Source: a virus. Taken from it: 48,282 nucleotides of DNA. The stretch spans positions 1 to 48,282 of the IMG/VR virus record IMGVR_UViG_3300042449_001003; one strand, 5' to 3'. The position numbers were made by a program, and so were the translations under genes. The notes beneath the pieces were generated by a model. That model ran no database searches, had not been told where the DNA came from, and saw nothing but the letters and a program-made list of their open reading frames with translations. Below are positions 15,843-48,176 of this stretch, piece by piece (the first letter of the stretch is position 1; each line of letters opens with the position of its first letter).

Positions 15843-16429
15843 GACACCTTCTCGACACTAACCGCCCAGTAGCAGGCATGTGGACCTACACGCAGCCTGA
15901 GACTGGCGTCACGATCAAGGACATCCACTGGGGAGGCTTCATCAAGCGTATCCGGGCTCACAGGCTGGCAAATGACCTCAACCTCCAAGGGGGCTGGGTG
16001 GACGAGCTACAGGACACGCTCTGCCGTGAGAACCCGCACCTGCCATGCGAGGAGATCGGTCATGTGGCTCGCTACTACACGCAGGACGACATCCAGCGGT
16101 TCGTCGCCACGATGCTCGAACTCAATGCCTCGAAGGAACTGGTGAGCGAGGAAGAACAGAAACGCCGGATCGACATCTGCGCTGTCTGCCCCAAGAACAC
16201 TTCCATCGGTGGGTGCAAATTCTGCTCATGGCTGGCAGAGAAGACCACCTCGCTGCTCGCTGGTCGTAAAATTCACCGAGTCTCTGAAGTCCACAAACGG
16301 TCGTGCGCGGCTTGTGGCTGCGACATTACCTCCAAAACTGCCGTGCCAATGACAGTCTTGAAGGCGGTCGATGAGAAGCTCGGAACTACGCCGGACTATG
16401 CTCCGGGGTGCTGGATGCTTATGGAGTAA
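15839..16429 (+). CDS. Cys-rich putative zinc-binding protein, 196 aa
   Basis: Starts in an ATGA overlap with the giant protein gene. The first half contains helical and aromatic segments. The second half has two Cys clusters: CAVCPKNTSIGGCKFC (residues about 117-132) and CAACGCDI (about 154-161), followed by a lone C near the end, which suggests one or two zinc sites. No family recognised. It ends 11 nt inside the 3' end of the convergent minus-strand gene. Being last in the virion operon, it may be a virion or late regulatory protein. Confidence 0.65.
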   Translation: MRHLLDTNRPVAGMWTYTQPETGVTIKDIHWGGFIKRIRAHRLANDLNLQGGWVDELQDTLCRENPHLPCEEIGHVARYYTQDDIQRFVATMLELNASKELVSEEEQKRRIDICAVCPKNTSIGGCKFCSWLAEKTTSLLAGRKIHRVSEVHKRSCAACGCDITSKTAVPMTVLKAVDEKLGTTPDYAPGCWMLME

Positions 16430-21693: not shown

Positions 21694-22484
21694 ATTCTTT
21701 GGGCGCGTTTTTGAAGGGGTTTTAAAAACACTTCTTCTAAGGTTTTGTATTTTTTCATCCGTGCTCTAACACTAGCGGCAGTTAGTCCGTAACGTTCGGC
21801 CATTTCGGACAGGCAGCAAGTATGACCTCGGAAAGTCACCAATATGTTCACGGATCTATTCCTAGCCTCCTCTTTAGCTGTTGCCCAACGCACATTTCCC
21901 GGTTCATAGTTCTTCTCATTGTCGATTCGATCAATCGCTGCCTTGTCAGAAGGGCGTCTTCCTACATGAGCTAAAAAGGCTTCAAATTTTGTGCCTCCCC
22001 CGCGCCATTCTTCAGCTACCTGAATACCTTTACCCCCGTAGTATTGGTAGTTTGAGGCTTTTGGGTTATGACACCTGTTAATCATAGCCATAAGGGTTCG
22101 GTACTCTACGGTGGGACCACGTACCGTTTCCCCGTGCGTCGGTTCTTTCCACACTACACAGTCCAAGCAAGACTTTACTGTCTTCAGATTGCCTGCCGAA
22201 ATTTGTCTGAAATTACCACACTCGCACTTACCTAGCCAGACTCCTCCTTTTTTCGGATGCATGAAAAGAAGGTTTTCAATTTTCAGCTTCCCATGAATCT
22301 CTCCGGTATGATCTTTAAAACGATGAGATTTTCCTTTTCCTTTGATCCATCCGTGTTTCGATGGAATAGCGTACAAAGCGTCTTGCATGGTGATAACATG
22401 TTGGATGTTAAGCGGAGGTGACTCAGTAGCATGAGTCACCTCCGCGCTATTACATAACATGAGTGCCAAGCGAATCAAGATCAT
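21690..22484 (-). CDS. Homing-type endonuclease (EDxHD/HNH-like), up to 264 aa
   Basis: The core matches a widespread free-standing phage endonuclease pattern: YRTLMAMINRCHNPKASNY, YYGGKGIQVAEEW, AAIDRIDNEKNYEPGNVRW, ATAKEEARN. Upstream of it CECGNF...KSCLDCV looks like a zinc ribbon, and the C-terminal part carries a helix-turn-helix (LSEMAERYGLTAASVRARM). Such enzymes cut DNA lacking the gene and spread it. It sits inside an otherwise metabolic operon, as expected for an insertion. The ATG at 22484 overlaps the upstream stop; an alternative start is the ATG at 22388, which would leave a 14-bp hairpin in the leader. Start uncertain, family fairly sure. Confidence 0.7.
   Translation of the reverse strand: MILIRLALMLCNSAEVTHATESPPLNIQHVITMQDALYAIPSKHGWIKGKGKSHRFKDHTGEIHGKLKIENLLFMHPKKGGVWLGKCECGNFRQISAGNLKTVKSCLDCVVWKEPTHGETVRGPTVEYRTLMAMINRCHNPKASNYQYYGGKGIQVAEEWRGGGTKFEAFLAHVGRRPSDKAAIDRIDNEKNYEPGNVRWATAKEEARNRSVNILVTFRGHTCCLSEMAERYGLTAASVRARMKKYKTLEEVFLKPLQKRAQRI
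22412..22445 (-). promoter_or_regulatory. 14-bp perfect inverted repeat at the endonuclease 5' end
   Basis: GCGGAGGTGACTCA (22412-22425) pairs perfectly with TGAGTCACCTCCGC (22432-22445) around a 6-nt loop. Both arms on the minus-strand RNA involve GGAGGTGA or its complement, which is a perfect Shine-Dalgarno core. It could be a translation-control hairpin or a terminator-like structure inherited with the mobile gene. No U-run follows it in the minus direction, which disfavours a plain intrinsic terminator. Confidence 0.6.
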
Positions 22485-23257
22485 TTTGGTTCATTAAATC
22501 CTGTCTTACTCCACATATTCTCGGTGCCAGCTTTGTCCAGACGTTCATAGGTTTGGATCGCTAGTTTCCGGCCTTCTGGGTCGGCTTTTTTCGCCCAGAA
22601 ATGGTGGTGGTCGATGAAGGGTCCGCCGTGCTCGTCTCCGGTTCCCCAGCTTGGTTCAGCCCAAGTTCTCGAATCGAGGATCTTTTCGTGCATCTTGACC
22701 GTAGGATCATAGAAGATGAATGGGATGTTTCGGACGAGCCTCAACTGCCAGTCCGTGATCAGGTGCCAGTTCTGGCAAGGTTTCGTGAAGTCGCCTGGAG
22801 CGCCGAACCAGTGGCGGCGGGACAGACGATAGGCGTTCTTGGAGCCTGACTGCCGCAGCGCGTCTTTGAGCATCGTTCCTTGCGGGTGCGATGGGTTCAA
22901 CATCTCGACCTTGAGATCAGGATTCTTCACCTGCGGGTAGCCTTCTGTGCCGTGACAGCGGACAAGCGGAGGATTCTCAGCAAAGCGTTCATCCGCGTCG
23001 AGGATGAGCACCCACTCGGCGTTGGACTCGCGGATACATCTGGAGCGAACCACGCCGTATCCCGAGTCGATCTTGGTGTGGACGAGCCGCACCCCGGCTT
23101 TCTCAACGAGTGCGATGGACTCGTCATCTGGCGGGGCGTCGGACGGTGGGGAGGAGACCATCACCACGTCGTCGAAGAACCCTGAAGTCGCCATTTCAAG
23201 GAAGCCGGGAAGGGCGAAAGGTTCCCTGAAAAAGTTACAGGCTAGACCTAAACTCAT
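22481..23257 (-). CDS. Glycosyltransferase family 2-like protein, 258 aa
   Basis: Starts with a GT-A-like fold (FREPFALPGFLEMATSGFFDDVVMV), reaches RSRCIRESNAEWVLILDADERF at about residues 72-93, where DADE is the classic DXD-like metal site, and ends with HHFWAKKADPEGRK. Expected to transfer a sugar from a nucleotide sugar. Overlaps the methyltransferase upstream and the endonuclease downstream by 4 nt each, so before the endonuclease arrived the next gene was probably the type-24 methyltransferase. Donor and acceptor unknown. Confidence 0.75.
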   Translation of the reverse strand: MSLGLACNFFREPFALPGFLEMATSGFFDDVVMVSSPPSDAPPDDESIALVEKAGVRLVHTKIDSGYGVVRSRCIRESNAEWVLILDADERFAENPPLVRCHGTEGYPQVKNPDLKVEMLNPSHPQGTMLKDALRQSGSKNAYRLSRRHWFGAPGDFTKPCQNWHLITDWQLRLVRNIPFIFYDPTVKMHEKILDSRTWAEPSWGTGDEHGGPFIDHHHFWAKKADPEGRKLAIQTYERLDKAGTENMWSKTGFNEPK

Positions 23258-26922: not shown

Positions 26923-28356
26923 TTAGCAAAAGTCCTCCTCATGTTTGATGGTTAGTTTCTTCCTTGGCACCGCGCCTTCGCGGTAAGATTCTAGTAACTG
27001 GAGCGCAGTTAAAAGTCGGTCTTCTGTGACCTTTTTCTCCTCGATCACCGTTGCTACTGCGTAGTCCACTGTATCCGGGATCATCAGTCGATAGACCGTC
27101 ACTACGCTTCCTTGTCCTCGCCGGTCGAGACGAGCAATCATCTGCTCGTAGTCCTCTCGGCTGTAGGTCAGTGTAAGCCAGACAAGTGTGTTTCCCCCGT
27201 GCTGGAGATTGAGCCCGTGACCAACGCTCTTCGGATGGGCGACCAAGATGGGGATCTTCTTGTTGTTCCAATCCTCTAAAAGCTGTTTCTGAGAGGTTTG
27301 ATTCTTGGCATCCGCAAAGAATCGGGCCTTGGGAAAGTATTTTCGTAGCCTCTCCTGTTCGTGCCTGAAGGCGCACGCTACCAGCACCGGCCCCTCCGTC
27401 TGCTTGATGATCTTCTCCAGTGCTTTGATCTTCAGATCATGGATGTCGTGCCACTTGCTGTCGGCGTCATAGATGCTCCCCGACGTGAACTGGAGCAGCT
27501 TGGCGACCAGTGCCGCAGCATTTGGAGCCGTGATCTCCGCTGACTTCAACTGGAGCACCAGTTCCTTCTCGAACTCCTTGTAGTCGTGGACGAGGTTCTT
27601 GGGCAGATGCACTTCCACGTCCTCAACCACTGTCTCCGGCAGGTTGAGCCAGTCTTTCGAGCGGAGCGTGAGGGTGATGTCGGCTAGCCGGTTCTCGATG
27701 GCTTCACCGGAGCCTGGAAGTTCTTTCCACTTGTAGCCCCCATACCCAGACTGCTTGAAGTAGGTCTGTTTGAAGTGCTCGAACGCACGACCAAGCCTCT
27801 TCCCGTTATCAACGAAACGTGCTTGGGCGAAGAGATCAAGAAGCGAGTTCGGAGCGGGGGTGCCAGTGAGCGCCCATATACGTTTGTGGATTTCATGCGT
27901 AACTTCACGGCGGTATAAATTGGCTCTCTTGGAGGTGGGGTTTTTGAGCTTGGTGGATTCATCCACTATCGTCAGGTCAAATGGGAGTCCTAGCCCCATG
28001 CTCCGCCGAGTCTTTACCAACTCGACGAGCTTGGGGATGGACTCGTAGTTGCAAACGTAGATGTGAGCTTTGCCTTGCAGGAACGCACGCTTGCCCGCAG
28101 GAGAGCGTAGGTTTGCCACCTTCATCCACTTAAAGTCGTCCCACCTCTCCACCTCCAGAGGCCAAGTCAGGTTTGCCACACGCATTGGAGCGAGGACGAG
28201 AGCGCCGATGGTCTGTTTCCGTTGGAACAGGGTGTTCAGCGCCGACAACGTAGCTGCGGTCTTCCCGATGCCGACGCCGACGAAGCCAAGAGCGTGCGGG
28301 TGGTCGAGGAGATGCTGTGTCAGCAGGTCTTGGGGTTCTGAAGAAGGGAACTTCAT
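26923..28356 (-). CDS. SNF2/SF2-type DNA helicase-translocase, 477 aa
   Basis: Walker A FVGVGIGKTAATL (about residues 25-37), Walker B TIVDESTKLKN (about 129-139), motif III SALTGTPAPN-like (WALTGTPAPNS), and in the second RecA domain LVWLTLTYSREDYEQMIARLDRRGQ matching motif VI of SNF2 proteins. Such phage helicases occur in replication/recombination modules with VRR-NUC, PolA and VapE-like genes. The start overlaps the stop of a 55-aa gene. It ends with EEDFC, a tail shared by other proteins here. Confidence 0.85.
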   Translation of the reverse strand: MKFPSSEPQDLLTQHLLDHPHALGFVGVGIGKTAATLSALNTLFQRKQTIGALVLAPMRVANLTWPLEVERWDDFKWMKVANLRSPAGKRAFLQGKAHIYVCNYESIPKLVELVKTRRSMGLGLPFDLTIVDESTKLKNPTSKRANLYRREVTHEIHKRIWALTGTPAPNSLLDLFAQARFVDNGKRLGRAFEHFKQTYFKQSGYGGYKWKELPGSGEAIENRLADITLTLRSKDWLNLPETVVEDVEVHLPKNLVHDYKEFEKELVLQLKSAEITAPNAAALVAKLLQFTSGSIYDADSKWHDIHDLKIKALEKIIKQTEGPVLVACAFRHEQERLRKYFPKARFFADAKNQTSQKQLLEDWNNKKIPILVAHPKSVGHGLNLQHGGNTLVWLTLTYSREDYEQMIARLDRRGQGSVVTVYRLMIPDTVDYAVATVIEEKKVTEDRLLTALQLLESYREGAVPRKKLTIKHEEDFC

Positions 28357-28521: not shown

Positions 28522-28836
28522 TTAGCAAAATTCTCGATCCGTTTTCAATAGTTTTCGAATGAACTCGCAGCCGTCCTCGACGTTGTCGCACCAAGTAGCT
28601 AGGCAGTTCTGTTTCGTGAGTTTGATGATCTCCCCCATCTGGAGCGGTGTGGGTTTCTTGCCCGCAGCCTTCACTTCGAGGAACCCAATCACCCCTTGCG
28701 GAGTGATGATCATCCGATCAGGGACGGCGCGGCGTGCGGGACTAACAAATTTAAGGTATAGACAGCCGTGCTTCTTGGCGAACTCACCGATTTTCTTCTC
28801 GATGTCTTTTTCGAGTTGGGGGCCGACGGGTTTCAC
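28522..28836 (-). CDS. VRR-NUC domain nuclease, 104 aa
   Basis: Pattern GCLYLKFVSPARRAVPDRMI, then VIGFLEVKAAGKKPTPLQ gives the PD-(D/E)XK acids (D of VPDR and E-V-K) of the VRR-NUC family of Holliday-junction or flap-type nucleases. I prefer the GTG at 28836, which overlaps the exonuclease stop (GTGA); an upstream ATG at 28890 would add 18 residues inside the previous gene. Usual length about 100 residues. It ends in DREFC. Partner genes are the exonuclease and the SNF2-like helicase. Confidence 0.8.
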   Translation of the reverse strand: MKPVGPQLEKDIEKKIGEFAKKHGCLYLKFVSPARRAVPDRMIITPQGVIGFLEVKAAGKKPTPLQMGEIIKLTKQNCLATWCDNVEDGCEFIRKLLKTDREFC

Positions 28837-29453
28837 AGAATCAGTTCTCTTTGAAGTTGGTCCATCTCTGCCTGTTTCTCCGCCTTGCACAGCTCCTGAA
28901 ACGCCGGGAGCAGGATCAGGTGGTTCACCTGCGAAATGGCGTCGTCGAGAGCGTTGTGGTGCGTGCCCACACGAGCAGGCATCTTGATGTGGGGGTACAT
29001 CGCTTTAAGGGTGCGGTAGCAGCGGTCGTTCCAGAATTTCCAAGGTGCCTCCAAGCCGAGCAGGTCGTAGGCTGCTTTCAGGAGCACGTTGTCGAAGTTG
29101 GCACCGTTTCCCCAGAGTTCTAGGTCTGGATTTGCTGCGTAGCCTGTCGGTGTGAATGGAGCTTCACACCACACTGAAAAAGCTTCCAAGACGTAACTCA
29201 AAAAAGAAGACTCTTTCTGAAACTCCTCTCTTGCTGCGCCCGACTGCTTCATCCACCACTTGACGGTGTCCACGTCGATGAGCATCCCCGCATCGACGCA
29301 GCTTTGCATGTCGATCCTCATGTAGAATGGCTCGCCGTACGGTCCGTTCTCGTCGAACTTAGTGGTTCCGATGGAGGTGATGATGGAGCCTGGGCGGGTG
29401 CCCATCGTTTCGAGGTCAACGCAGACCCTCGTAGGTTTGATTTTTGGGTTCAT
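28833..29453 (-). CDS. DnaQ-like 3'-5' exonuclease, 206 aa
   Basis: VCVDLETMGT (Exo I acids D and E), SIITSIGTTKF, VDTVKWWMKQSG, an ELWGNGANFDNVLL segment (Exo II) and THHNALDDAISQ (Exo III, H and D) make a DEDDh exonuclease like those in phage replication modules, related to exonuclease VIII or RNase T. It degrades 3' ends, probably in recombination or proofreading. It starts 10 nt after a probable -10 box, with no Shine-Dalgarno, so it heads a leftward unit to at least 26349. Confidence 0.85.
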   Translation of the reverse strand: MNPKIKPTRVCVDLETMGTRPGSIITSIGTTKFDENGPYGEPFYMRIDMQSCVDAGMLIDVDTVKWWMKQSGAAREEFQKESSFLSYVLEAFSVWCEAPFTPTGYAANPDLELWGNGANFDNVLLKAAYDLLGLEAPWKFWNDRCYRTLKAMYPHIKMPARVGTHHNALDDAISQVNHLILLPAFQELCKAEKQAEMDQLQRELIL

Positions 29454-29493: not shown

Positions 29494-31653
29494 TTATTTC
29501 TGATAAAATTCAACCTCCCCGCCTTCAGCGGCGAGGGGCATACCTTCGGCCCATGAGGGGAGCTTGGTGAGGCACTCGACGAAGTGGTCGGCTGACTGTC
29601 CTGCGAGGGGATCGTACTCGGAGAGGGCTTCGTCGTGGATGAGGGCGACGATCTTGTAGCCTGCGCGGGAGGCGTTGATGGCACCGTGGGCCATGAAGTC
29701 TGCCGCAATCGCTTGCGTACTGTTTTCCACCAGCGATCCGCCATATGTGGCTACTCGTCCCCAAACTGCCTTCATCGGTATCTGGCCAAAAAAGGTGATC
29801 GCTTCCGACATTCTAGCTTTGGGATGCTTCTGTTTGACCTTGGCTACTTGATCAGGCGTCGGGTTGAATAGTTTCTTCTGCTCGTAACTTATGACCTTGC
29901 GAATCTGGATTGGTTTTCCTTCTTCGTCAGTTCCGTTCACCAACTCGACCTTCTCCTCTTTCCACACAAGCTGGGGAGTAAGCTGAGGTTGTGGGTAAGC
30001 GAGCTTCCTGCCGCTGGGGAGACGCATGAACAAGTAGTCCATGCCTGCGGTCTTGGTCCTGAAGAAACCGCAGTTCACACCGAACGGGTAAACCTTTCCT
30101 GGGTTTCTGATGGCGTTCTTGGCAGCGTCCTCAGTCGTTCGCCAGTGAACGACGACTGCTGGGTTGGCTTCCCTCCATTGACTGATGATGTCCGGGAGTT
30201 CTTCTTTGGTGAGTCCGTTCTTCAGTGCTCCCATGCGTTCGAGAGCACCGACTCCGCCCCCGAAACCACACGCAAGCTCGGCCTGTTTACCTTTTTGGCG
30301 TAGAGGATGCTTCTCTCCGCGAGCTTCATACGACTCAAACTCCGAGAAAGGAACCTTGAACATCATGGACGCCGACGCCTCGTAAATCTTGCCGTGCGTT
30401 TTGAACACGTCGAGCCTCCACTTCTCCTGCGCTTGCCATGCGATGATGCGCGCTTCGATGGCCGCGTAATCGGCATCTAGCATCGGTCCCTTGTCTTGGA
30501 TGAAATGCCTGATGCACGACGAAACAACTTCAAGAGGTGGTCCATACACAAGATTGAGCCAGTCACGGTTGCATCCTGCAATGATGTCGTCGTAGGCTTT
30601 ACCTGTCAGTTTCTTGAGATACTCAGCAGGGCGTTTGAAGTTTTGAGGTTGGACAAGTGATGCACTCCATCGCCCCGTGCCTGCGCCATGGTACACCAGT
30701 GTCCCCCGGACACGGTTGTCTTGTGGACCTGCACAGCCGAGCATTGCCGGGATCTTCTTGAGTGAAGCGTAACTCACCCTCTTCTTCAATGTCAGAGCAC
30801 GGCCAAGAGGTGTCGAGTCATCGAACTCCTCGTCCTCGAAAATCTCCTCCAGTGTGTCAGCACGAAGGTTGTCATGTTTGAAACCGTTCTTCTGTAGCCA
30901 TTCGACCACGCGATCACGTTGAGTGTGCTCGAAGCCGGTGAGTTTCCTGAACTCTTCAGCGAGAGCCTCCGTCTCCTCGTTCACCAGTTTCTCCGCCTTG
31001 CGGAGCGCGTCGAGGTTCACGGGGAAGCCACGGCAGTTGATGTCAATGTCTAAGAGAAACGTCTGGAGTGGGAATCCGGTAAGCTCGAAGTCTTTCAACG
31101 TCCTGTGAATTTCTTGTTCGACCTTAACATCGGTTAAACAATAGTCCGTGAAGTCCTTGAAAGCCTCCGGCTCGTCAGTCGGTTCGATGAACTCGCCTTT
31201 CCGTTTGCCGACAGTCTGCGGGACGGAGAACTTGCGAATCAGACCTTTGCCTTTGCTGTCCTTCAGGTTCTTCAGGTTCAACGTCTCCGCCAGCTTCTCC
31301 AGGCTCGCAGGCAGGGCGGCACGTCTGCCCATAGCTGCGGTGCAACGCCATTGGTGATGAGCGGGCGGAGCGAAGCCCGTCGTCTTCTCCATGAGGGCGT
31401 CGAGGCAGGCTATCTCGAATTGCGCGTTGTGGGCATAAACGATGGAGTCGGGGTGGGATAGCTTGGCGAGCAGGTGCTCTGAGTCTTGGTAGCCTTCCTC
31501 ACATCCAGGCACCCACAGTTCAGGATCACGCTCCCCCTCCGCAATCGCGATGCACAGAATTTCTGTGCTAGGGTCTCTCGCGTATCGGTGCGCGCCGACC
31601 TTCTTCAAGTCAGCGCGGGACCGAGTCTCGATGTCAACATGATAGGTGGGCAT
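29494..31653 (-). CDS. polA: DNA polymerase, family A, 719 aa
   Basis: Starts with a DEDD exonuclease segment YHVDIETRSRADL (residues 4-16) and YAHNAQFEIACLDAL. The polymerase domain has motif A LDADYAAIEARIIAW at about 391-405, the O-helix-like region with RQKGKQAELACGFGGGVGAL, and motif C ALIHDEALSEYD at about 670. This is a typical phage replicative PolI-like enzyme with proofreading. The leader (31654-31832) is long and structured, and GGGAGGA lies 19 nt before the ATG, unusually far for a ribosome site. Confidence 0.9.
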   Translation of the reverse strand: MPTYHVDIETRSRADLKKVGAHRYARDPSTEILCIAIAEGERDPELWVPGCEEGYQDSEHLLAKLSHPDSIVYAHNAQFEIACLDALMEKTTGFAPPAHHQWRCTAAMGRRAALPASLEKLAETLNLKNLKDSKGKGLIRKFSVPQTVGKRKGEFIEPTDEPEAFKDFTDYCLTDVKVEQEIHRTLKDFELTGFPLQTFLLDIDINCRGFPVNLDALRKAEKLVNEETEALAEEFRKLTGFEHTQRDRVVEWLQKNGFKHDNLRADTLEEIFEDEEFDDSTPLGRALTLKKRVSYASLKKIPAMLGCAGPQDNRVRGTLVYHGAGTGRWSASLVQPQNFKRPAEYLKKLTGKAYDDIIAGCNRDWLNLVYGPPLEVVSSCIRHFIQDKGPMLDADYAAIEARIIAWQAQEKWRLDVFKTHGKIYEASASMMFKVPFSEFESYEARGEKHPLRQKGKQAELACGFGGGVGALERMGALKNGLTKEELPDIISQWREANPAVVVHWRTTEDAAKNAIRNPGKVYPFGVNCGFFRTKTAGMDYLFMRLPSGRKLAYPQPQLTPQLVWKEEKVELVNGTDEEGKPIQIRKVISYEQKKLFNPTPDQVAKVKQKHPKARMSEAITFFGQIPMKAVWGRVATYGGSLVENSTQAIAADFMAHGAINASRAGYKIVALIHDEALSEYDPLAGQSADHFVECLTKLPSWAEGMPLAAEGGEVEFYQK

Positions 31654-31832
31654 GATCTCAAAACAAAAGAAGTCCTCCCGTCCGCCGCTCCTTTCGGTTT
31701 ACAAGCCGATTTAGATCGCTGACGCGGTGTTGAGCCGTTGAAGGCTACGGGAGGAAATTGGATGGGCAGTTGTCTCCGAAACAACGTCTCAGGCTAACGC
31801 CTGTGTTTTGCACTAAACTATACCCAAAGGTT
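31654..31832 (-). promoter_or_regulatory. Structured leader RNA of the DNA polymerase gene
   Basis: Non-coding 179 bp between the ssDNA-binding gene and the polymerase. On the minus-strand RNA I see in order: hairpin CAGGC-GTTA-GCCTG (31803-31790), hairpin GTTGT-N7-ACAAC (31785-31769), then a 9-bp long-range stem TCCTCCCGT (31755-31747) with ACGGGAGGA (31681-31673). That stem encloses the hairpins AGCC-N6-GGCT (31746-31733) and TCGG-N8-CCGA (31709-31694). The closing stem sequesters GGGAGGA, the only Shine-Dalgarno-like sequence before the ATG. A TATAGT at 31822-31817 could be a -10 box, with a poor -35. Confidence 0.5.
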
Positions 31833-32471: not shown

Positions 32472-32500
32472 ACTATATTTCGAGATACTGAAACTGTCAA
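32472..32500 (-). promoter_or_regulatory. Promoter with embedded operator for the ssDNA-binding gene
   Basis: On the minus strand TTGACA (32500-32495) and TATAGT (32477-32472) are exactly 17 bp apart. TTTCAGTATCTCGAAA (32493-32478) occupies the spacer, in the inverted orientation compared with most sites. The -10 box is followed by TACTCCG. Best overall promoter of the set; the leader is about 55 nt, so this mRNA is not leaderless. Confidence 0.65.
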
Positions 32501-32508
32501 GGGGTGAT

Positions 32509-33243
32509 TTAACAAAAATCGTCGTTCGGGTAAGCGGCTGAAATTCTGGACTGAGCGATCTTGAAGTACTTTTCGTCCTGCTCAATGCCGATGAATTTAC
32601 GTCCCAAGTTACCGCAGGCGACTCCTGTCGTGCCGCTGCCCATCGTGTTGTCGAGGACCAGTTCGCCTTCGTTGGTGTAGGTCTTGATGAGATACTCCAT
32701 CAGGGCGACGGGCTTCTGAGTGGGGTGGACTTTATCTTTCGATGAAGACCCCTGAAAATTCAAAACTGTTGTCGGGTATCGGAAACCGGAGTTATCATTT
32801 CCCTCTCTTTTGTCCGCCCCAAAATTGGCGCTTTTATTTTTACCACATTTGTCCTTATAAGGTTCACCCAGCTTCATCTGAGGTAGATAAAGCGGGGTTG
32901 TCTGACAGAAGACAAGTACGTCCTCTTTATCGCGCAAGGGGGCTTTTTTAGCGTTTAAATGCCCAGTACCTCGTTCCTTCTGCCAAACCCAGTCGTATTT
33001 GAATTCCTTCAAATTGCTGCACACAAGCACGCTTGTAAATGGTTGGGCAGCCGTCAGCACGATAGCTGCTGAAGGTTTGCACACTCTCCGATAAGCGGCC
33101 CACAAAGTCGGCAGGTCAATCACACTGTCCCATTTATTCTGTGTCGTCCCGTACGGCAAATCACACATGACCATGTCCACGCTGCCATCCGGTATGCGCT
33201 CCATTGCAGACAGGCACTCTTCGTTCCAAAGGGTGTAGTTCAT
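32509..33243 (-). CDS. DNA N6/N4 methyltransferase, 244 aa
   Basis: Catalytic motif IV appears as CDLPYGTTQNKWD (DLPY in place of DPPY, near residues 28-40), and the SAM-binding motif I as DNTMGSGTTGVACG near 200-213, followed by FIGIEQDEKYF. This order is that of beta-class amino-methyltransferases. It may protect phage DNA from host restriction. The ATG (33243) shares a base with the upstream TGA (TGATG) within the GGAGGACTTTTGC element. Ends in NDDFC. Confidence 0.85.
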   Translation of the reverse strand: MNYTLWNEECLSAMERIPDGSVDMVMCDLPYGTTQNKWDSVIDLPTLWAAYRRVCKPSAAIVLTAAQPFTSVLVCSNLKEFKYDWVWQKERGTGHLNAKKAPLRDKEDVLVFCQTTPLYLPQMKLGEPYKDKCGKNKSANFGADKREGNDNSGFRYPTTVLNFQGSSSKDKVHPTQKPVALMEYLIKTYTNEGELVLDNTMGSGTTGVACGNLGRKFIGIEQDEKYFKIAQSRISAAYPNDDFC

Positions 33244-34448
33244 CAGCAAAAGTCCTCCGCTCCAGTCTCATCAGAAAACACGTTCGCCAGATTCTCCGAG
33301 CCATAGACAGGTCGTGGATCGTCAACTGAAACGAGCGTCGGCCCCCCTTCAGGCTTGACGATGAGTTTCTGGATGACGCTCCACTCGTCTTTCTCGAAGT
33401 CGATTTCAAACTCAGCCGCCTGTGCTGGTGTGATGATGTCTTCTTTCACACACTCCTCGCGCTTCAGCTTCTCCAACAGCTTCTCCTTGGCGAGGTCTGG
33501 GTTGCCCCACTTGCGGTGTCCGCCTTTTCCTTTCACCAGCTTCAAGCCAGGAAGCGGTTTGCCGCTGAGTGCCATTGCCAGACCATACTTCTCGATGGAG
33601 CCGAGCCACTTCTTGATGTCGTCCACTTTGAGGATGAGCTTGGAGAGCACGTCGTCGGAGACACTGTCAGCTTTCGGCAGCTTCGGTACTTCTCCTGATG
33701 TGATCGTCTCAAGCGGCGTATCGTCGAGCAACCACTTCGTCCGGGCCTCGCAGAAGCTCTCACAAGGACAGAACTGGCACGTCTTGGTGCCGGGACGGAA
33801 CTCCAAGGTGAGTGCTTTGGCCTGGATGTCCTCCGCAGGTCCGAGCACGCGGTCGTCCGTAAACTGAACGAGTTCCTTGTAGTCGAGGGCCCAGGTTGAC
33901 TGCTTGTCTCCCTGACGCACTCTCGGCTGGTAAATGTGCATGTGGACGGTCTGAGTCTTGAGCTTGAGTTGCTCGATCATCGACCGTGCGTAGATCGCCA
34001 TCTGGAGATTCTCGAACGCGGAGACGGCGACTCCCTGACCGTACTTGTAGTCGGCGATATGGACGCCGTCGTCAGCAACACAGCAGAAGTCAACGTAGCC
34101 GTTGCGGGCAAGCATGTAGAAGAGGTTGACCTTCAGTTCGCTCCACCACCTGTGGCCCATCCCTGTGCGTTTCAGGTGCTCCGTCTGTCCGGGAGCTTTC
34201 TTATCGAGGCAGAAGGCGACGAACGCGGAGGCGTGCGTCTTCATCTCCGGCGTAGCCTTGGGGTTGATGGCAGTCCGCTTGAACATCGCCTCGACGACAC
34301 CGTGAGCTACAGTCCCTTCGACCGAGAACTCCGTGTCTTGTGGCGGGATGCGCGAGGCGTTCTGGACGACGTAGTGGGGTTGGGCCGTGCATTCGGTCCA
34401 CGTCGCTGCGGCGGATGCGTTGAGATTGAGTTTGAGGTATCGGCTCAT
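33243..34448 (-). CDS. DUF2800-like RecB/Cas4-type nuclease, 401 aa
   Basis: WTECTAQPHYV near the start, EGTVAHGVVEAMF (His of the nuclease core), NGYVDFCCVADDGVHIADYKYGQG (D and DYKYG as the PD-(D/E)XK core) and CQFCPCESFCEAR, a four-Cys group as in Cas4/AddB-like iron-sulfur nucleases. DUF2800 proteins neighbour DUF2815 and PolA in phage modules. Probably a 5' or end-processing exonuclease in recombination. Ends in GAEDFC. Confidence 0.75.
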   Translation of the reverse strand: MSRYLKLNLNASAAATWTECTAQPHYVVQNASRIPPQDTEFSVEGTVAHGVVEAMFKRTAINPKATPEMKTHASAFVAFCLDKKAPGQTEHLKRTGMGHRWWSELKVNLFYMLARNGYVDFCCVADDGVHIADYKYGQGVAVSAFENLQMAIYARSMIEQLKLKTQTVHMHIYQPRVRQGDKQSTWALDYKELVQFTDDRVLGPAEDIQAKALTLEFRPGTKTCQFCPCESFCEARTKWLLDDTPLETITSGEVPKLPKADSVSDDVLSKLILKVDDIKKWLGSIEKYGLAMALSGKPLPGLKLVKGKGGHRKWGNPDLAKEKLLEKLKREECVKEDIITPAQAAEFEIDFEKDEWSVIQKLIVKPEGGPTLVSVDDPRPVYGSENLANVFSDETGAEDFC

Positions 34449-35813: not shown

Positions 35814-38438
35814 TTAGCAAAATTCCTCCTCGTTATTTGTTTCTTTCCCTTCCGCCCGGTCGCGAGCAATCTGGAATACTTCTGCGGGCATCTTTCCATC
35901 GAACTTGCCCTGCTTGATCCAAAGGTAGCCCCTCATGCTGTCTATCATCGGCCTTCCTGGAACTCGTAAATAGTGCTCTTCACGGAGCAGCTTGCCGATG
36001 CGCTGGGGGCTCTCCTTCAACCCTTCCATCGTGAGTGCCCCCATCAAGGACGGCTCCCAGACCATGTCTTCGGAGAGCAGCGGTGACTCGGAGTCGCGGA
36101 GCGTGCGGCGGATGGCTGAAGTGACCTCGTCCGCCGAGTCCTCAATCATCTCTTCGAGGTACTTGGTCTTGGGGGCGCGTCCGTTGGGGTTGAAGCCTGG
36201 ACTGATCGTCCAAGTCTCGAAAAAACTGCGAAGCCCGCCAGCGAGGTTGTCCAGCATCCCAAACAACCTGTCGAAATATCCCGGCCCCAAGGCTGCCACC
36301 TGCTCCTCAGTCTGGAGCTTGGACTTGATGACGAAGTACCTTCTGCTGCCTGCCATCACCGCCAGAGCGTCGTGGTGATTGGTGAACATGATGTAGTTGG
36401 TGATGTTCTTGTGCTTTCTGGTGTCCGCGTGCTTCTTGTTCACCGAGACAAAGTCGTCTGTGACCAGCTCTTTGAGCTTGTTCATTATGTCGTGCCTGTT
36501 GTGCCCGGCGACACGCACTTCCCCAATGACGATGAGTTGCGCTCCAACTGCCCACTCGTTCCAGTTGCCGCGAATGGCTTCGTTGTTCACATACATCACG
36601 TTCTCTTCTCCGAGGATCTTCCCCAGCAGGATCGCCCACAATGTCTTGCCGATGCCTTCCCCACCCTGCATCAGAGGAGCCCATCGGCACTTTTTCCCAG
36701 GGTTCTGAACGTGGAAAGCGATGTAGTCCAAGATCACCCGCTGGTACTCGGTCTCGGCAATCAGATTGCGAAGATGCTCTTGGAGGATGTTGCCTGCCTG
36801 CTCGGCATCCGCAGGTTTGGCTTTGGGGTAGCAGGCGCGATAGGTGTTCACCAACTTGAGTCCATTCTCGTCTTCGCTGTAAATCTCTTTTGGGGAGGTG
36901 GGGTCATAGGTCGTGTCATCGACGACCGGGCATTCGATCTTGTTGAGTAGGTACTGGTTGGGGAGAATCGGAGGGACGTAGAGCGCGGTGTCGGTGGCAT
37001 CTTTGCCTTGGGCTTCTATCTGCTCAGGCGGAGTGAGCAGGAACCGGGAATACTCAGCGTTGAAGGCTTCCTTGGAGCGCCACTGGTGGGTGGATGGACG
37101 GAAAAACTTCTCGTAGCAGGCGACATAGAACCACCCTTTCGTCCAAGCTGGGTCTTTTTTGACAGCTTCTTCCGGCGTCTTAGACTTGAGTTGTGCCTTG
37201 CGGAGCTTGTCGAGATCCTTCTTCAGATCGCCGAGGCGACCCTTCTCCCCGAGCTTGGTGAGTGCCCGCAGGATGGAGTTGAGCAGGGTTCCTTCTTCAA
37301 CGTGTGTCAGGATGGGCAACTGTGCGATTCTCTCCAGAGCGATGTGGGTCATCTCATGGAGTGTTTTCGCCTCGTCGTTGATCCAGTCATTGACGACTTT
37401 GAAACAGTCCTCTTTGACCTTCCCCACGTTCCATCCTGCGTCGGCGGCTCGTTTGATGAGCGTTCTGATTGTCACCGGCACTCTGCCGCGTGGCGTGGTG
37501 TAAACAGCGTCCCACTTGGCACGGGTGCCGTCTGGACCGGGGTAGGTGTCTCCTCCTGACGACCACTTGTCGAAGAGGTTGAAGGCTTCCTCTTCCTGCT
37601 CGGTATCTGAGTATTGGTGACGGAGTGCGCAGCAGACTTCAAACCACTCTTGGTAGCCGCAGTTGGGCGACAATGTTTCGAGCGCAGCGGCGATGTCCTT
37701 GAACTCCACTCCCATCAGTGGAGCGCGGAGATATTCGAGACCATCGTCCTCTGCGTAGCTGCGTTTCGCCTTCTCGGGGTTGATGCTGGTGTCTTTGACA
37801 TCTGACAAGGTGAAGGCGTCTCCTTTGAGGAACGACACCACCATGGGATGCTCGCTGTCGGGGTCTTGGTCTGCGAACAGACTCGGACAGATCATCGGCT
37901 GGTTTGGAGTCAGCGACTCTTTCGTGATGTTCCCCAGCCCGATCCTCTCGGCGATGGTCTTCACCGCTGCTGGGTAGGCTTCCAACGTGATGTTGTCCGC
38001 GTCCACCACGATACGCATCCGTGGTTTTTCTGGCGTCGAGCTGGCAGTTGTGTAAGCTGCGAAGTTGAAGGGGCGAAGAGCCTTCAGCAGGATGTCCGGG
38101 TTCTCGATGTAGGGGGCGGCTGGTGAGCGACCATCCTTCTCTGTGTCCAAGTCCAGGAAGAGCAGATTGCAGCAGTTCGTCTTCTCGGCAAACTTGCGCT
38201 CGCGAGAGGTCTCCTCTTCATCGAAGACGCAGGCGACGAGATAGGTCGTGTCCTTGGCGTTGAGTCGCTCGGTCCTCCCCTCCGAGGTGTCGGAGGGAAT
38301 GGCTGCGTATTCCTTGCGTGTGAGACGTAGCGGGACTGCCGCGTCGAGATGCTTTTTGACAAGCTCGCCGAACGACCTAGCTGCGGACGCTCTCACACGG
38401 TTGGATTTTACTGATCCACCGTAAAAGTATTTAGCCAT
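35814..38438 (-). CDS. Primase-helicase (PrimPol-PriCT-SF3/VapE-like), 874 aa
   Basis: N-terminal PrimPol-like domain with NLLFLDLDTEKDG (catalytic acids) and TTASSTPEKPRMRIVVD (residues about 90-160); a PriCT-2-like segment around residues 250-330 (CGYQEWFEVCCALRHQYS, AVYTTPRGRVPVTIRTLIKR); then a DUF5906/VapE-type helicase with Walker A MQGGEGIGKTLWA at about 588-600, Walker B-like LIVIGEV and sensor NYIMFTNHHDAL. It would synthesise primers and unwind DNA at the phage origin. Starts 6 nt after the repressor gene. Ends in NEEEFC. Confidence 0.85.
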   Translation of the reverse strand: MAKYFYGGSVKSNRVRASAARSFGELVKKHLDAAVPLRLTRKEYAAIPSDTSEGRTERLNAKDTTYLVACVFDEEETSRERKFAEKTNCCNLLFLDLDTEKDGRSPAAPYIENPDILLKALRPFNFAAYTTASSTPEKPRMRIVVDADNITLEAYPAAVKTIAERIGLGNITKESLTPNQPMICPSLFADQDPDSEHPMVVSFLKGDAFTLSDVKDTSINPEKAKRSYAEDDGLEYLRAPLMGVEFKDIAAALETLSPNCGYQEWFEVCCALRHQYSDTEQEEEAFNLFDKWSSGGDTYPGPDGTRAKWDAVYTTPRGRVPVTIRTLIKRAADAGWNVGKVKEDCFKVVNDWINDEAKTLHEMTHIALERIAQLPILTHVEEGTLLNSILRALTKLGEKGRLGDLKKDLDKLRKAQLKSKTPEEAVKKDPAWTKGWFYVACYEKFFRPSTHQWRSKEAFNAEYSRFLLTPPEQIEAQGKDATDTALYVPPILPNQYLLNKIECPVVDDTTYDPTSPKEIYSEDENGLKLVNTYRACYPKAKPADAEQAGNILQEHLRNLIAETEYQRVILDYIAFHVQNPGKKCRWAPLMQGGEGIGKTLWAILLGKILGEENVMYVNNEAIRGNWNEWAVGAQLIVIGEVRVAGHNRHDIMNKLKELVTDDFVSVNKKHADTRKHKNITNYIMFTNHHDALAVMAGSRRYFVIKSKLQTEEQVAALGPGYFDRLFGMLDNLAGGLRSFFETWTISPGFNPNGRAPKTKYLEEMIEDSADEVTSAIRRTLRDSESPLLSEDMVWEPSLMGALTMEGLKESPQRIGKLLREEHYLRVPGRPMIDSMRGYLWIKQGKFDGKMPAEVFQIARDRAEGKETNNEEEFC

Positions 38439-47038: not shown

Positions 47039-47665
47039 ATGTGGGATTCTGACATTGTTATGGAACGAAAACTCCGAAAATATATGGAAAAGAGAATGCT
47101 GCCGACTTTGAAAGTCGATGCGGCTTCCCACGCGGCTCTCATGTTCATTATGGACAAGACAGGCGATTCTCTCGCTAACCTGATCAACCAGTTGCTGATT
47201 TTAGGGCTGGAAGAATACGGTTATTCACCTCGCGCATTCAAAAGAGATCCACGAACACCGACGGATGTGGAAAAGAAGGTGAGCATGAGAAACTTGTTAC
47301 TGAGGCCAGGAAAGGCCCTTGTAAAAGGTTTTCGGGTGCCTTCCGCTCTGTTGGAGGATGTGAGGATGGAGCAAGGCAAGCGGCCCCTTGCAGAAGTGAT
47401 GGAAGAAGCGATGAAGAAATGGCTGGAAAGCAGCCTGAAAACCTCGCGGCCTACGCCTAAAACTCCAGAGCAGTCCTTTGCGCACGAACGCCGGGTGAAG
47501 CAATACGAGCAGGAGCCGCGAGAATCAGGGAAGCTGGAGCTAACCCGCAGAGAGCCGTGGAAGCCTGATTTCCCGCTCGAAAAGGAGTGGATAGCTGTTG
47601 AGTCGATCACGATGGGGTGGCGCGCAGAATCGCAGGAGAACGTGAACGAGGGGGATTTTTGCTGA
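47039..47665 (+). CDS. Putative DNA-binding protein with two ribbon-helix-helix-like units, 208 aa
   Basis: The first unit, PTLKVDAASHAALMFIMDK..GDSLANLINQLLILGLEEYG, has the strand-helix-helix spacing of RHH repressors. The second, KGFRVPSALLEDVRMEQGKRPLAEVMEEAMKKWL, repeats that pattern. The rest is charged and probably disordered. The ATG is preceded by GACTGAGAGATACA. Probably a transcription regulator of the right side or a partner of the next gene. Ends EGDFC; the GAGGGGG of its last codons is the ribosome site for the following gene. Confidence 0.5.
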   Translation: MWDSDIVMERKLRKYMEKRMLPTLKVDAASHAALMFIMDKTGDSLANLINQLLILGLEEYGYSPRAFKRDPRTPTDVEKKVSMRNLLLRPGKALVKGFRVPSALLEDVRMEQGKRPLAEVMEEAMKKWLESSLKTSRPTPKTPEQSFAHERRVKQYEQEPRESGKLELTRREPWKPDFPLEKEWIAVESITMGWRAESQENVNEGDFC

Positions 47666-47666
47666 T

Positions 47667-48176
47667 ATGGCTAAAGCAATGGTAAGCCCGGAAACGTGGC
47701 AAGCGATCAAACTAGCATCTATTCGCGGAGTGCCAGACGCTACTTTGGCGGAGCACTTCGGCGTCACTTGTAACGCTATCACAAGCCGGAGATTCGATGA
47801 TGCGGAATGGAAAGCGGCAAAGCCTAAATTGACAGCGCTACCGCCAAAGCAAGCTACAAGCAATACAGAGGCTATTGAAGCGGTCACAAATGCCTCTTTA
47901 GCAGAGATTGGCGAACAGAATTCGCTGTTGCTTGCTCGCTATATCTCCCAGAAAATAAAAACCAGTGCCGAGAATGACCTCCTGCCAGAGCCGAGTAACT
48001 GGGCAGAACTAAAAACCGCCAGTGAGATCCTGCGGAAAGCGACTGGGCAGGACCGCGACCAAGCTGCGGTCAGCGTCAATCTATTCGGCGGTAGCGCCGG
48101 TTTTGAGTCTTCCGCGCCCACTTTTGAAGCCTCGCTTGTTGAGAATCAAGACGCTGGAAGTGCTGATTTCTGTTAA
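47667..48176 (+). CDS. Putative terminase small subunit / HTH protein, 169 aa
   Basis: N-terminal HTH-like region ETWQAIKLASIRGVPDATLAEHFGVTCNAI, then RRFDDAEWK, a helical middle (ASLAEIGEQNSLLLARYISQ) and WAELKTASEILRKATGQDRD, a layout like phage small terminase subunits, with VSVNLFGG near the end. If right, it sits 22 kb from terL and faces the missing capsid genes to the right. An ordinary HTH regulator is the alternative. Ends SADFC. Confidence 0.5.
   Translation: MAKAMVSPETWQAIKLASIRGVPDATLAEHFGVTCNAITSRRFDDAEWKAAKPKLTALPPKQATSNTEAIEAVTNASLAEIGEQNSLLLARYISQKIKTSAENDLLPEPSNWAELKTASEILRKATGQDRDQAAVSVNLFGGSAGFESSAPTFEASLVENQDAGSADFC

What the first reader, a model, noticed from the sequence alone, without database searches (positions are those of the whole stretch)
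31654..31832. Multi-hairpin leader RNA that hides the polymerase ribosome site
Four local hairpins and a 9-bp long-range stem (TCCTCCCGT with ACGGGAGGA) make up most of the 179-nt gap. The 3' arm holds the only GGGAGGA before the DNA polymerase ATG, and it lies an unusual 19 nt away. T4 and RB69 DNA polymerases repress their own translation by binding a leader hairpin (known). A similar feedback or a ligand- or protein-controlled switch here is inference.
Basis: partly seen in the sequence, partly recalled or inferred. Interest (0 to 1): 0.66.

Follow-up and report, generated by a model that had tools for sequence, protein, structure and literature searches.

The report
Two folded RNAs before phage polymerase
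The stretch before this uncultivated phage's DNA polymerase gene holds a tRNA-shaped RNA with a shrunken anticodon loop and a new conserved folded RNA; it is not a simple device that hides the polymerase's ribosome site.

Summary
On the minus strand, between an Enc34-type ssDNA-binding protein gene and a family-A DNA polymerase, the 179-nt gap holds two adjacent RNA modules.

Module A (31759-31826) is a complete cloverleaf ending in CCA, with a 4-nt anticodon loop. It is invisible to ARAGORN and Rfam, but is the only such object in 16 phage records and absent from 2.9 Mb of simulated sequence. A near relative holds an ARAGORN tRNA (8-nt anticodon loop) at exactly that position.

A covariance model finds it in 9 phage records (6 distinct sequences); 12 of 26 pairs show double compensating changes, including 5 of the 9 stem pairs. 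No Rfam family matches.

Ribosome-site hiding is not supported. GGGAGGA occurs in 3 of 6 distinct copies, B abuts the polymerase in 2 of 6, and gene starts in this phage show little or no Shine-Dalgarno enrichment. The polymerase is family A, unlike T4/RB69.

Closest known kind: the tRNA-like small stable RNAs of phage T4 (species 1 and 2), here inside a replication operon. The function of both modules is inferred, not shown.

The parts
31759..31826 (-). Module A: tRNA-like cloverleaf ending in CCA (acceptor TGGGTA/TGCCCA, then T, then CCA)
   Evidence: 72-nt fold gives the cloverleaf as minimum free energy, -21.2 kcal/mol, z -2.48; only descriptor hit in 16 records, 0 in 2.9 Mb simulated; coordinates. 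ARAGORN and Rfam tRNA do not see it; in a 198-nt fold the acceptor and D arm do not form.
31805..31818 (-). D-like arm GTTT-AGTGCA-AAAC (loop one G short of the usual GG, by recall)
31790..31803 (-). anticodon-position arm CAGGC-GTTA-GCCTG: 5 bp stem, loop of only 4 nt
   Evidence: a tRNA has 7 nt here (recalled)
31769..31785 (-). T-like arm GTTGT-TTCGGAG-ACAAC: 5 bp, 7-nt loop beginning TTC
31673..31755 (-). Module B: three-way-junction RNA closed by the reported 9-bp stem
   Evidence: covariance model R1: 111.5 bits here, 8 credible matches at E <= 1.4e-5; covariation
31747..31755 (-). 5' arm of the closing stem P1 (TCCTCCCGT)
31673..31681 (-). 3' arm of P1 (ACGGGAGGA), holding the GGGAGGA
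   Evidence: GGGAGGA kept in 3 of 6 distinct copies
31733..31746 (-). hairpin P2 AGCC-TTCAAC-GGCT (AGTCC-GCAA-GGACT in L048)
   Evidence: 2 of 5 pairs with double changes; P2 is missing in L009
31678..31727 (-). arm P3 (CCGC/GCGG; CTGT/ACAG in L048) with inner helices CGATCT/GGAGCG and CGG/CCG
   Evidence: P3: 2 of 4 pairs double-changed and 100% of cells paired
31654..31672 (-). 19-nt T-rich spacer between module B and the polymerase ATG
   Evidence: no terminator-like site on this strand
32472..32500 (-). sigma-70-like promoter (TTGACA-17-TATAGT) upstream of the ssDNA-binding protein gene; possible start of the transcript that carries modules A and B
   Evidence: 11 of 12 consensus positions; 1 found, 0.6 expected at the weaker 9-of-12 threshold; consensus match only

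Best explanation
The gap is a pair of noncoding RNA modules embedded in the phage's replication operon (ssDNA-binding protein - A - B - polymerase), not a polymerase-specific ribosome-site switch. Module A is a tRNA-like RNA: a cloverleaf with CCA whose anticodon loop has shrunk to 4 nt, so it cannot decode normally. Module B is a separate three-way-junction RNA that recurs in related phages, usually next to a tRNA or tRNA-like element and only sometimes next to the polymerase. Proposed working, inferred: the operon transcript is cut by the host's tRNA-processing enzymes (RNase P at the 5' end of A; 3' trimming in the AU-rich CCA|ATTT junction). This frees a small stable tRNA-like RNA, separates the ssDNA-binding-protein and polymerase messages (tRNA punctuation), and leaves B either as a second stable RNA or as a protective 5' cap of the polymerase message. 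Shown: anatomy, homology, covariation, position. Not shown: transcription, processing, function.
For: Module B: 27 pairs in 5 close sequences, 5 pairs with double changes, slid controls at most 1; RNAalifold finds the same fold; with the distant L009 copy, 12 of 26 pairs double-changed, slid controls at most 3 (alignment fitted to the model). Model R1 finds it in window, G018, G002, G017, G019, L006, L013 and G007; G001 is identical to the window. Module A: unique descriptor hit in 16 records, none in 2,896,920 simulated bases; the cloverleaf is the minimum-energy fold of its own 72 nt. L006 has an ARAGORN tRNA with an 8-nt loop ('tttt') between the same flanks, AAAACCTTTG before and CCA(A)TTTCCTCCCGTAGCCT after. 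Clade pattern: tRNA-model hits gather in this interval, 11 of 17 hits in 42 records by my placing (with contig ranges), and several depart from canonical tRNAs in the anticodon region: an 8-nt loop in L006, no anticodon arm in L034 (48.4 bits), extra inserts in L005 and L014. T4 rnaC, annotated as a small stable RNA, likewise has a canonical T arm plus a large insert.
Against: ARAGORN finds no tRNA in the window, no Rfam family reaches threshold, and RF00005 gives no match in G000 even at E <= 10, so module A rests on fold, CCA, uniqueness and position. My descriptor was written after seeing the cloverleaf, and it misses the relatives' elements. In the 198-nt fold the acceptor and D arm of A are lost because TGGGTAT pairs with ATGCCCA at the polymerase start. 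Bulk folding of the leader is not exceptional. L008's tRNA-Leu has a normal 7-nt loop, so not every relative is aberrant. L048 (G018) has B but no tRNA-model hit in its gap. No transcript data exist. The two polymerase-adjacent copies (window, L048) do both keep GGGAGGA.
Confidence: 0.6

Rival explanations
1. Translational switch of the polymerase: the 9-bp stem of module B sequesters GGGAGGA and a protein or ligand opens or locks it.
For: In both polymerase-adjacent distinct copies (window, L048) the 3' arm is (A/G)CGGGAGGA, 17-19 nt before the ATG. The stem covaries. Unpaired stretches such as CTTRTAAA and CAACAC are conserved among the 5 close copies, as in ligand- or protein-binding RNAs.
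Against: GGGAGGA in 3 of 6 distinct copies; B abuts the polymerase in 2 of 6; L006 keeps GGGAGGA although the polymerase is about 1.1 kb away. Little or no Shine-Dalgarno enrichment at starts. The 17-19-nt spacing is long. Family A polymerase, not the T4/RB69 kind.
Confidence: 0.17
2. Mutually exclusive pairing: the 5' acceptor strand of module A (TGGGTAT) pairs either with TGCCCA in the cloverleaf or with ATGCCCA at the polymerase start, so folding or processing of the tRNA-like element frees the start codon.
For: The minimum-energy fold of the 198-nt leader uses the second pairing; the fold of the 72-nt piece uses the first.
Against: Seen in one sequence only. By reading, L006, L003, L005 and L048 do not keep the complementarity. 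A 7-bp match in 200 nt is easily chance.
Confidence: 0.07
3. Decayed tRNA gene: module A is a remnant of a tRNA once carried by the phage lineage, now without function, while module B alone is functional.
For: A lacks the 7-nt anticodon loop and one D-loop G; a related phage has a better tRNA at the same place; Rfam no longer recognises it.
Against: All four arms are still fully paired and CCA is intact; other phages keep paired acceptors, T arms and CCA-like ends while the anticodon region changes, which is not what neutral decay gives.
Confidence: 0.13
4. Transcription attenuator: B plus its T-rich tail terminates or pauses transcription before the polymerase.
For: GC-rich closing stem followed by CTTCTTTTGTTTTG in the window and CTTTTTTGTTTTG in L048.
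Against: The consensus scan finds no terminator-like site on this strand; the stem encloses about 65 nt, unlike an intrinsic terminator; L003 and L035 copies have no T run.
Confidence: 0.03

Closest known systems
Phage T4 small stable RNAs rnaC and rnaD (species 1 and 2 RNA)
   Same: Phage-encoded, larger than or different from tRNA; rnaC has a canonical T arm (CCGGG-TTCGAAT-CCCGG) and a large non-tRNA insert, z -4.57; the rnaD sequence runs into CACCA. Function unknown as far as I know (recalled).
   Different: T4's lie in a tRNA gene cluster, 119-139 nt; here one short 68-nt cloverleaf lies between the ssDNA-binding protein and polymerase genes, next to an unrelated RNA (module B). No sequence relation was tested beyond model R1, which finds nothing credible in L131.
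Translational operator of T4/RB69 DNA polymerase gene 43
   Same: RNA hairpin upstream of a phage DNA polymerase gene.
   Different: That operator is a 16-18-nt hairpin with a -UAAC- loop about 40 bases upstream, together with sequence that overlaps the ribosome site (PMC3014915, passages read). Here the polymerase is family A, no hairpin has a UAAC loop, and the RNA recurs away from the polymerase.
Phage tRNAs with altered anticodon loops proposed to resist host anticodon nucleases (PMC10264068; abstract and outline seen)
   Same: Phage tRNA(-like) genes whose anticodon region departs from the host form.
   Different: Those are tRNAs with mutated anticodon loops; here the loop is 4 nt, or the arm is missing or replaced in relatives, so decoding is unlikely.
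tmRNA and mascRNA-like tRNA mimics
   Same: Acceptor and T-arm mimicry without a normal anticodon (recalled); the armless L034 element scores 24.1 bits with the mascRNA model, below its cut-off.
   Different: The window element has D and anticodon-position stems and no Rfam match.

Membership tests
T4/RB69 polymerase autogenous operator | controls a T4-type (family B) polymerase | tested here: not met
   Pfam DNA_pol_A (34.2 bits, cut-off 34.3) and PHROG 17 DNA polymerase, E 3e-103; that T4/RB69 polymerases are family B is recalled
T4/RB69 polymerase autogenous operator | short hairpin with UAAC-type loop about 40 nt upstream, with sequence overlapping the ribosome site | tested here: not met
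   loops here are GUUA, UUCGGAG, UUCAAC, CUUGUAAA
T4/RB69 polymerase autogenous operator | polymerase binds the RNA | not testable with these tools
   needs binding assay
Shine-Dalgarno-sequestering leader | sequestered SD conserved in the stem across relatives | tested here: not met
   GGGAGGA in 3 of 6 distinct copies
Shine-Dalgarno-sequestering leader | the organism's genes start with SD sequences | tested here: not met
   8 of 27 starts against 29% of 409 internal ATGs at 4 nt or longer; 4 of 27 against 7.6% at 5 nt or longer
tRNA | recognised by ARAGORN or Rfam RF00005 | tested here: not met
   0 genes; no gathering match; no match at E <= 10
tRNA | 7-nt anticodon loop | tested here: not met
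   4-nt loop
tRNA | cloverleaf with 5-bp T arm, 7-nt T loop, and CCA end | tested here: met
   acceptor is 6 bp
Phage tRNA-like small stable RNA (T4 species 1/2 kind) | tRNA-like acceptor/T-arm half with non-tRNA anticodon domain | tested here: met
   T4 rnaC compared
Phage tRNA-like small stable RNA (T4 species 1/2 kind) | accumulates as a discrete processed RNA | not testable with these tools
   needs RNA-seq or northern blot
Any curated Rfam family (module B) | match at or near a family's gathering score | tested here: not met
   none at gathering for the window; none at E <= 1 overlapping module B in 19 gap loci; a single 14.9-bit THF-II match at E 3.7 on the other strand

The most novel reading that the evidence does not exclude
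An uncultivated phage clade carries, between its ssDNA-binding-protein and polymerase genes, a fast-evolving island of RNA genes: tRNA-shaped RNAs whose decoding arm is shrunk, deleted or replaced, together with several undescribed conserved RNA families (module B here; a 17-bp-stem family in five relatives). They act as non-decoding RNAs, for example decoys for host tRNA-targeting defences or for tRNA-binding proteins, or as replication factors.
Probability: 0.3. Interest if true: 0.82.

Novelty: new variant of a known kind. Interest (0 to 1): 0.6.

Why it matters
Small stable tRNA-like RNAs of T4 have, as far as I know, no assigned function after decades. A clade in which such RNAs sit in a fixed place, change their anticodon domain from phage to phage and travel with a conserved partner RNA gives a comparative handle on what they do. 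Module B is a covariation-supported RNA with no Rfam match, so it is a candidate new RNA family. For annotators it shows that a polymerase leader that looks like a translational switch can be a pair of RNA genes.

Tried and rejected
Bulk folding energy as evidence: rejected, since 81 of 404 tiles fold as well or better. Reading the leader on the plus strand: rejected, both flanking genes are on minus. Element B in bacterial genomes: one pattern scan gave one match in an Amycolatopsis contig that I rejected on reading, because nothing around the pattern matches the element. Of 9 pattern stretches in viral contigs, L053, L055, L056 and L058 were rejected the same way. A 72-nt tmRNA-model hit in G002 was rejected on reading. 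A weak B-like match in L008 (12.9 bits) was left out of the counts. Distant DNA search in isolate phages and plasmids for B: only short matches at E about 10. A DUF2815-based scan found no further close relatives. Literature: searches showed nothing describing tRNA-like elements between these two genes; that is a statement about those searches in that library only. P2 is absent from the L009 copy, so P2 is not universal.

Full report
WHERE IT LIES. The window is an uncultivated virus record of 48,282 bases. The polymerase (29494-31653, minus) matches Pfam DNA_pol_A at 34.2 bits against a cut-off of 34.3 and PHROG 17 'DNA polymerase' at E 3e-103; the gene before it matches Enc34_ssDNA-bd (DUF2815) at 115.8 bits. 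Neighbours are a DNA methylase, a DUF2800/PD-(D/E)XK protein, a primase-type protein and an SNF2-type helicase, so this is the replication block. Named isolates with the same type of polymerase reach about 37% identity at best in the rows listed. In the three isolates I opened (phiCDKH02, Pd_22F, Emery) the preceding gene abuts or overlaps the polymerase, with no gap.

THE OBSERVATION. On the minus strand the 9-bp stem, the local hairpins, the single GGGAGGA and the 19-nt spacing are as described. Folding energy of the leader is ordinary (z -1.16; 81 of 404 tiles at or below), and 17 of 400 simulated leaders contain a 9-bp inverted repeat. Sequence alone would therefore not carry the claim; relatives do.

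MODULE B. The region 31673-31755 recurs. Pattern, BLAST and covariance-model searches give it in the window, G001 (identical), G002/L003, G004/L006, G017/L035, G018/L048, G019/L059, and more distantly G007/L009 and G010/L013: 9 records, 6 distinct sequences. On the five close sequences, 27 named pairs are 91% paired, 5 pairs carry double changes (9 cells; 0 of 500 shuffles reach that number of cells), and sliding the partner by 1-3 columns leaves at most 1 such pair. RNAalifold on the same alignment returns the same structure but for one pair. Adding L009 (29.9 bits, E 1.4e-5 over 866,772 bases) gives 12 of 26 pairs with double changes (18 cells), slid controls at most 3; that alignment was fitted to the model and leans towards it. 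In L009 the closing stem is largely rewritten (TTCCATGT/ACATGGGAA) yet still pairs. P2 is absent there. No Rfam family overlaps B at E <= 1.

WHY NOT SIMPLY A HIDDEN RIBOSOME SITE. GGGAGGA is present in the window, L006 and L048, absent in L003, L035 and L009. B is 17-19 nt before the polymerase in the window and L048 only; in L003, L006, L035 and L009 it is about 0.5 to 1.2 kb upstream with other elements or genes between. Among 27 gene starts of the window, 8 have a Shine-Dalgarno match of 4 nt or more at spacing 4-12, against 29.1% of 409 internal ATGs; for 5 nt or more it is 4 of 27 (15%) against 7.6%. That small excess could be real, but it shows that most genes of this phage do not rely on such a site. 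A role in the two polymerase-adjacent copies remains possible.

MODULE A. The first two hairpins belong to a cloverleaf: acceptor TGGGTA/TGCCCA, D-like arm, 5-bp arm with a 4-nt loop at the anticodon position, 4-nt variable region, 5-bp T-like arm with a 7-nt loop beginning TTC, then T and CCA. It is the minimum-energy fold of its 72 nt (z -2.48, 4 of 200 shuffles as good). A descriptor with tRNA-like lengths and a CCA end hits once in both strands of 16 records and never in 2,896,920 simulated bases; the descriptor was written after the fact. ARAGORN, Rfam gathering and RF00005 at E <= 10 do not report it. In the longer 198-nt fold the acceptor strand pairs instead with the polymerase start. 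The strongest support is positional: L006 has, between the same flanking strings, an ARAGORN tRNA with an 8-nt anticodon loop.

THE CLADE. RF00005 gave 17 hits in 14 of 42 records; by my placing 11 of the 17 lie between the ssDNA-binding-protein and polymerase genes (placing from contig ranges). Several are odd at the anticodon: an 8-nt loop in L006; no anticodon arm in L034 (48.4 bits); a long insertion after the anticodon arm in L014 (49.4 bits); a 146-nt element in L005 (31.8 bits); L016 folds as a five-arm structure with a CCA end. L008's tRNA-Leu (54.0 bits) is ordinary. Other folded modules fill the same interval: one with a 17-bp stem pairs 17 of 17 in each of five relatives, with changes on both sides at 6 positions. 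In the window itself I found only A and B.

CLOSEST KNOWN. T4 rnaC and rnaD are annotated as small stable RNAs, species 1 and 2. rnaC contains a canonical T arm and folds strongly (z -4.57; rnaD z -0.83). I take A, and the relatives' larger elements, as the same kind of object, without claiming homology. The T4/RB69 polymerase operator (PMC3014915, passages read) differs in polymerase family, hairpin form and position. PMC10264068 (abstract and outline) argues that phage tRNAs change anticodon loops to resist host nucleases; a non-decoding tRNA-like RNA could be a further step, which is inference.

HOW IT MOST LIKELY WORKS. Shown: two adjacent modules, B conserved by covariation, A a CCA-ended cloverleaf at the place of a tRNA. 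Inferred: transcription from the promoter-like site at 32500-32472 through the ssDNA-binding-protein gene, A, B and the polymerase; cleavage by tRNA-processing enzymes at A; persistence of A as a stable non-decoding RNA; B as a second RNA or as a structured 5' end of the polymerase message. I put about 0.6 on this two-RNA-gene view over a polymerase-specific switch.

Noticed in passing
window 26923-28356, 28522-28890, 32509-33249, 33243-34448, 35814-38438 (minus), 47039-47665, 47667-48176 (plus): Seven ORFs, five of them in the replication block (helicase, methylase, nuclease and primase types among them), end in an acidic residue plus FC (such as EEDFC, DDFC, AEDFC); every FC-ending ORF of 80 aa or more in the window does so. 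G002, G017 and G018 show 4, 8 and 9; G003, G011 and G014 show none. Possibly a shared C-terminal interaction or degradation tag.
   Followed up: partly
L003 3552-3682, L006 401-577, L019 3736-3913, L035 2904-3042, L010 3530-3628: A second RNA family in the same interval of relatives: a 17-bp closing stem, fully paired in 5 of 5 with changes on both sides at 6 positions, around interiors of very different length; the L006 copy holds a canonical T arm.
   Followed up: partly
L034 3928-3984 (G033:40287-40343): A tRNA-model hit of 48.4 bits that lacks the whole anticodon arm, directly before the polymerase.
   Followed up: no
L006 232-306: ARAGORN tRNA with an 8-nt anticodon loop (tttt) directly after the ssDNA-binding protein gene.
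   Followed up: partly
L132 (G027:40233-40532, minus): A tmRNA-model match of 96.2 bits over its full length in a phage record with a related polymerase; ARAGORN does not call it.
   Followed up: no
L003, L007, L016, L035 gaps: Short recurring hairpin strings, such as TGAGCAACCTGCTGACAATGTGGTNGCTC, and CAGCCTCGGCTCCGTCACTGTAACGACGGGCA in L005 and L007, shared between phages with otherwise different gap sequences.
   Followed up: no
window 22328-22506 and 16242-16420, minus: The two most unusually stable tiles of the window (z about -5 with 12 shuffles each), both overlapping predicted genes.
   Followed up: no
L006 and L035, before the polymerase: Free-standing ORFs that look like HNH/AP2-type homing endonucleases (by eye) sit between the RNA modules and the polymerase.
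   Followed up: no
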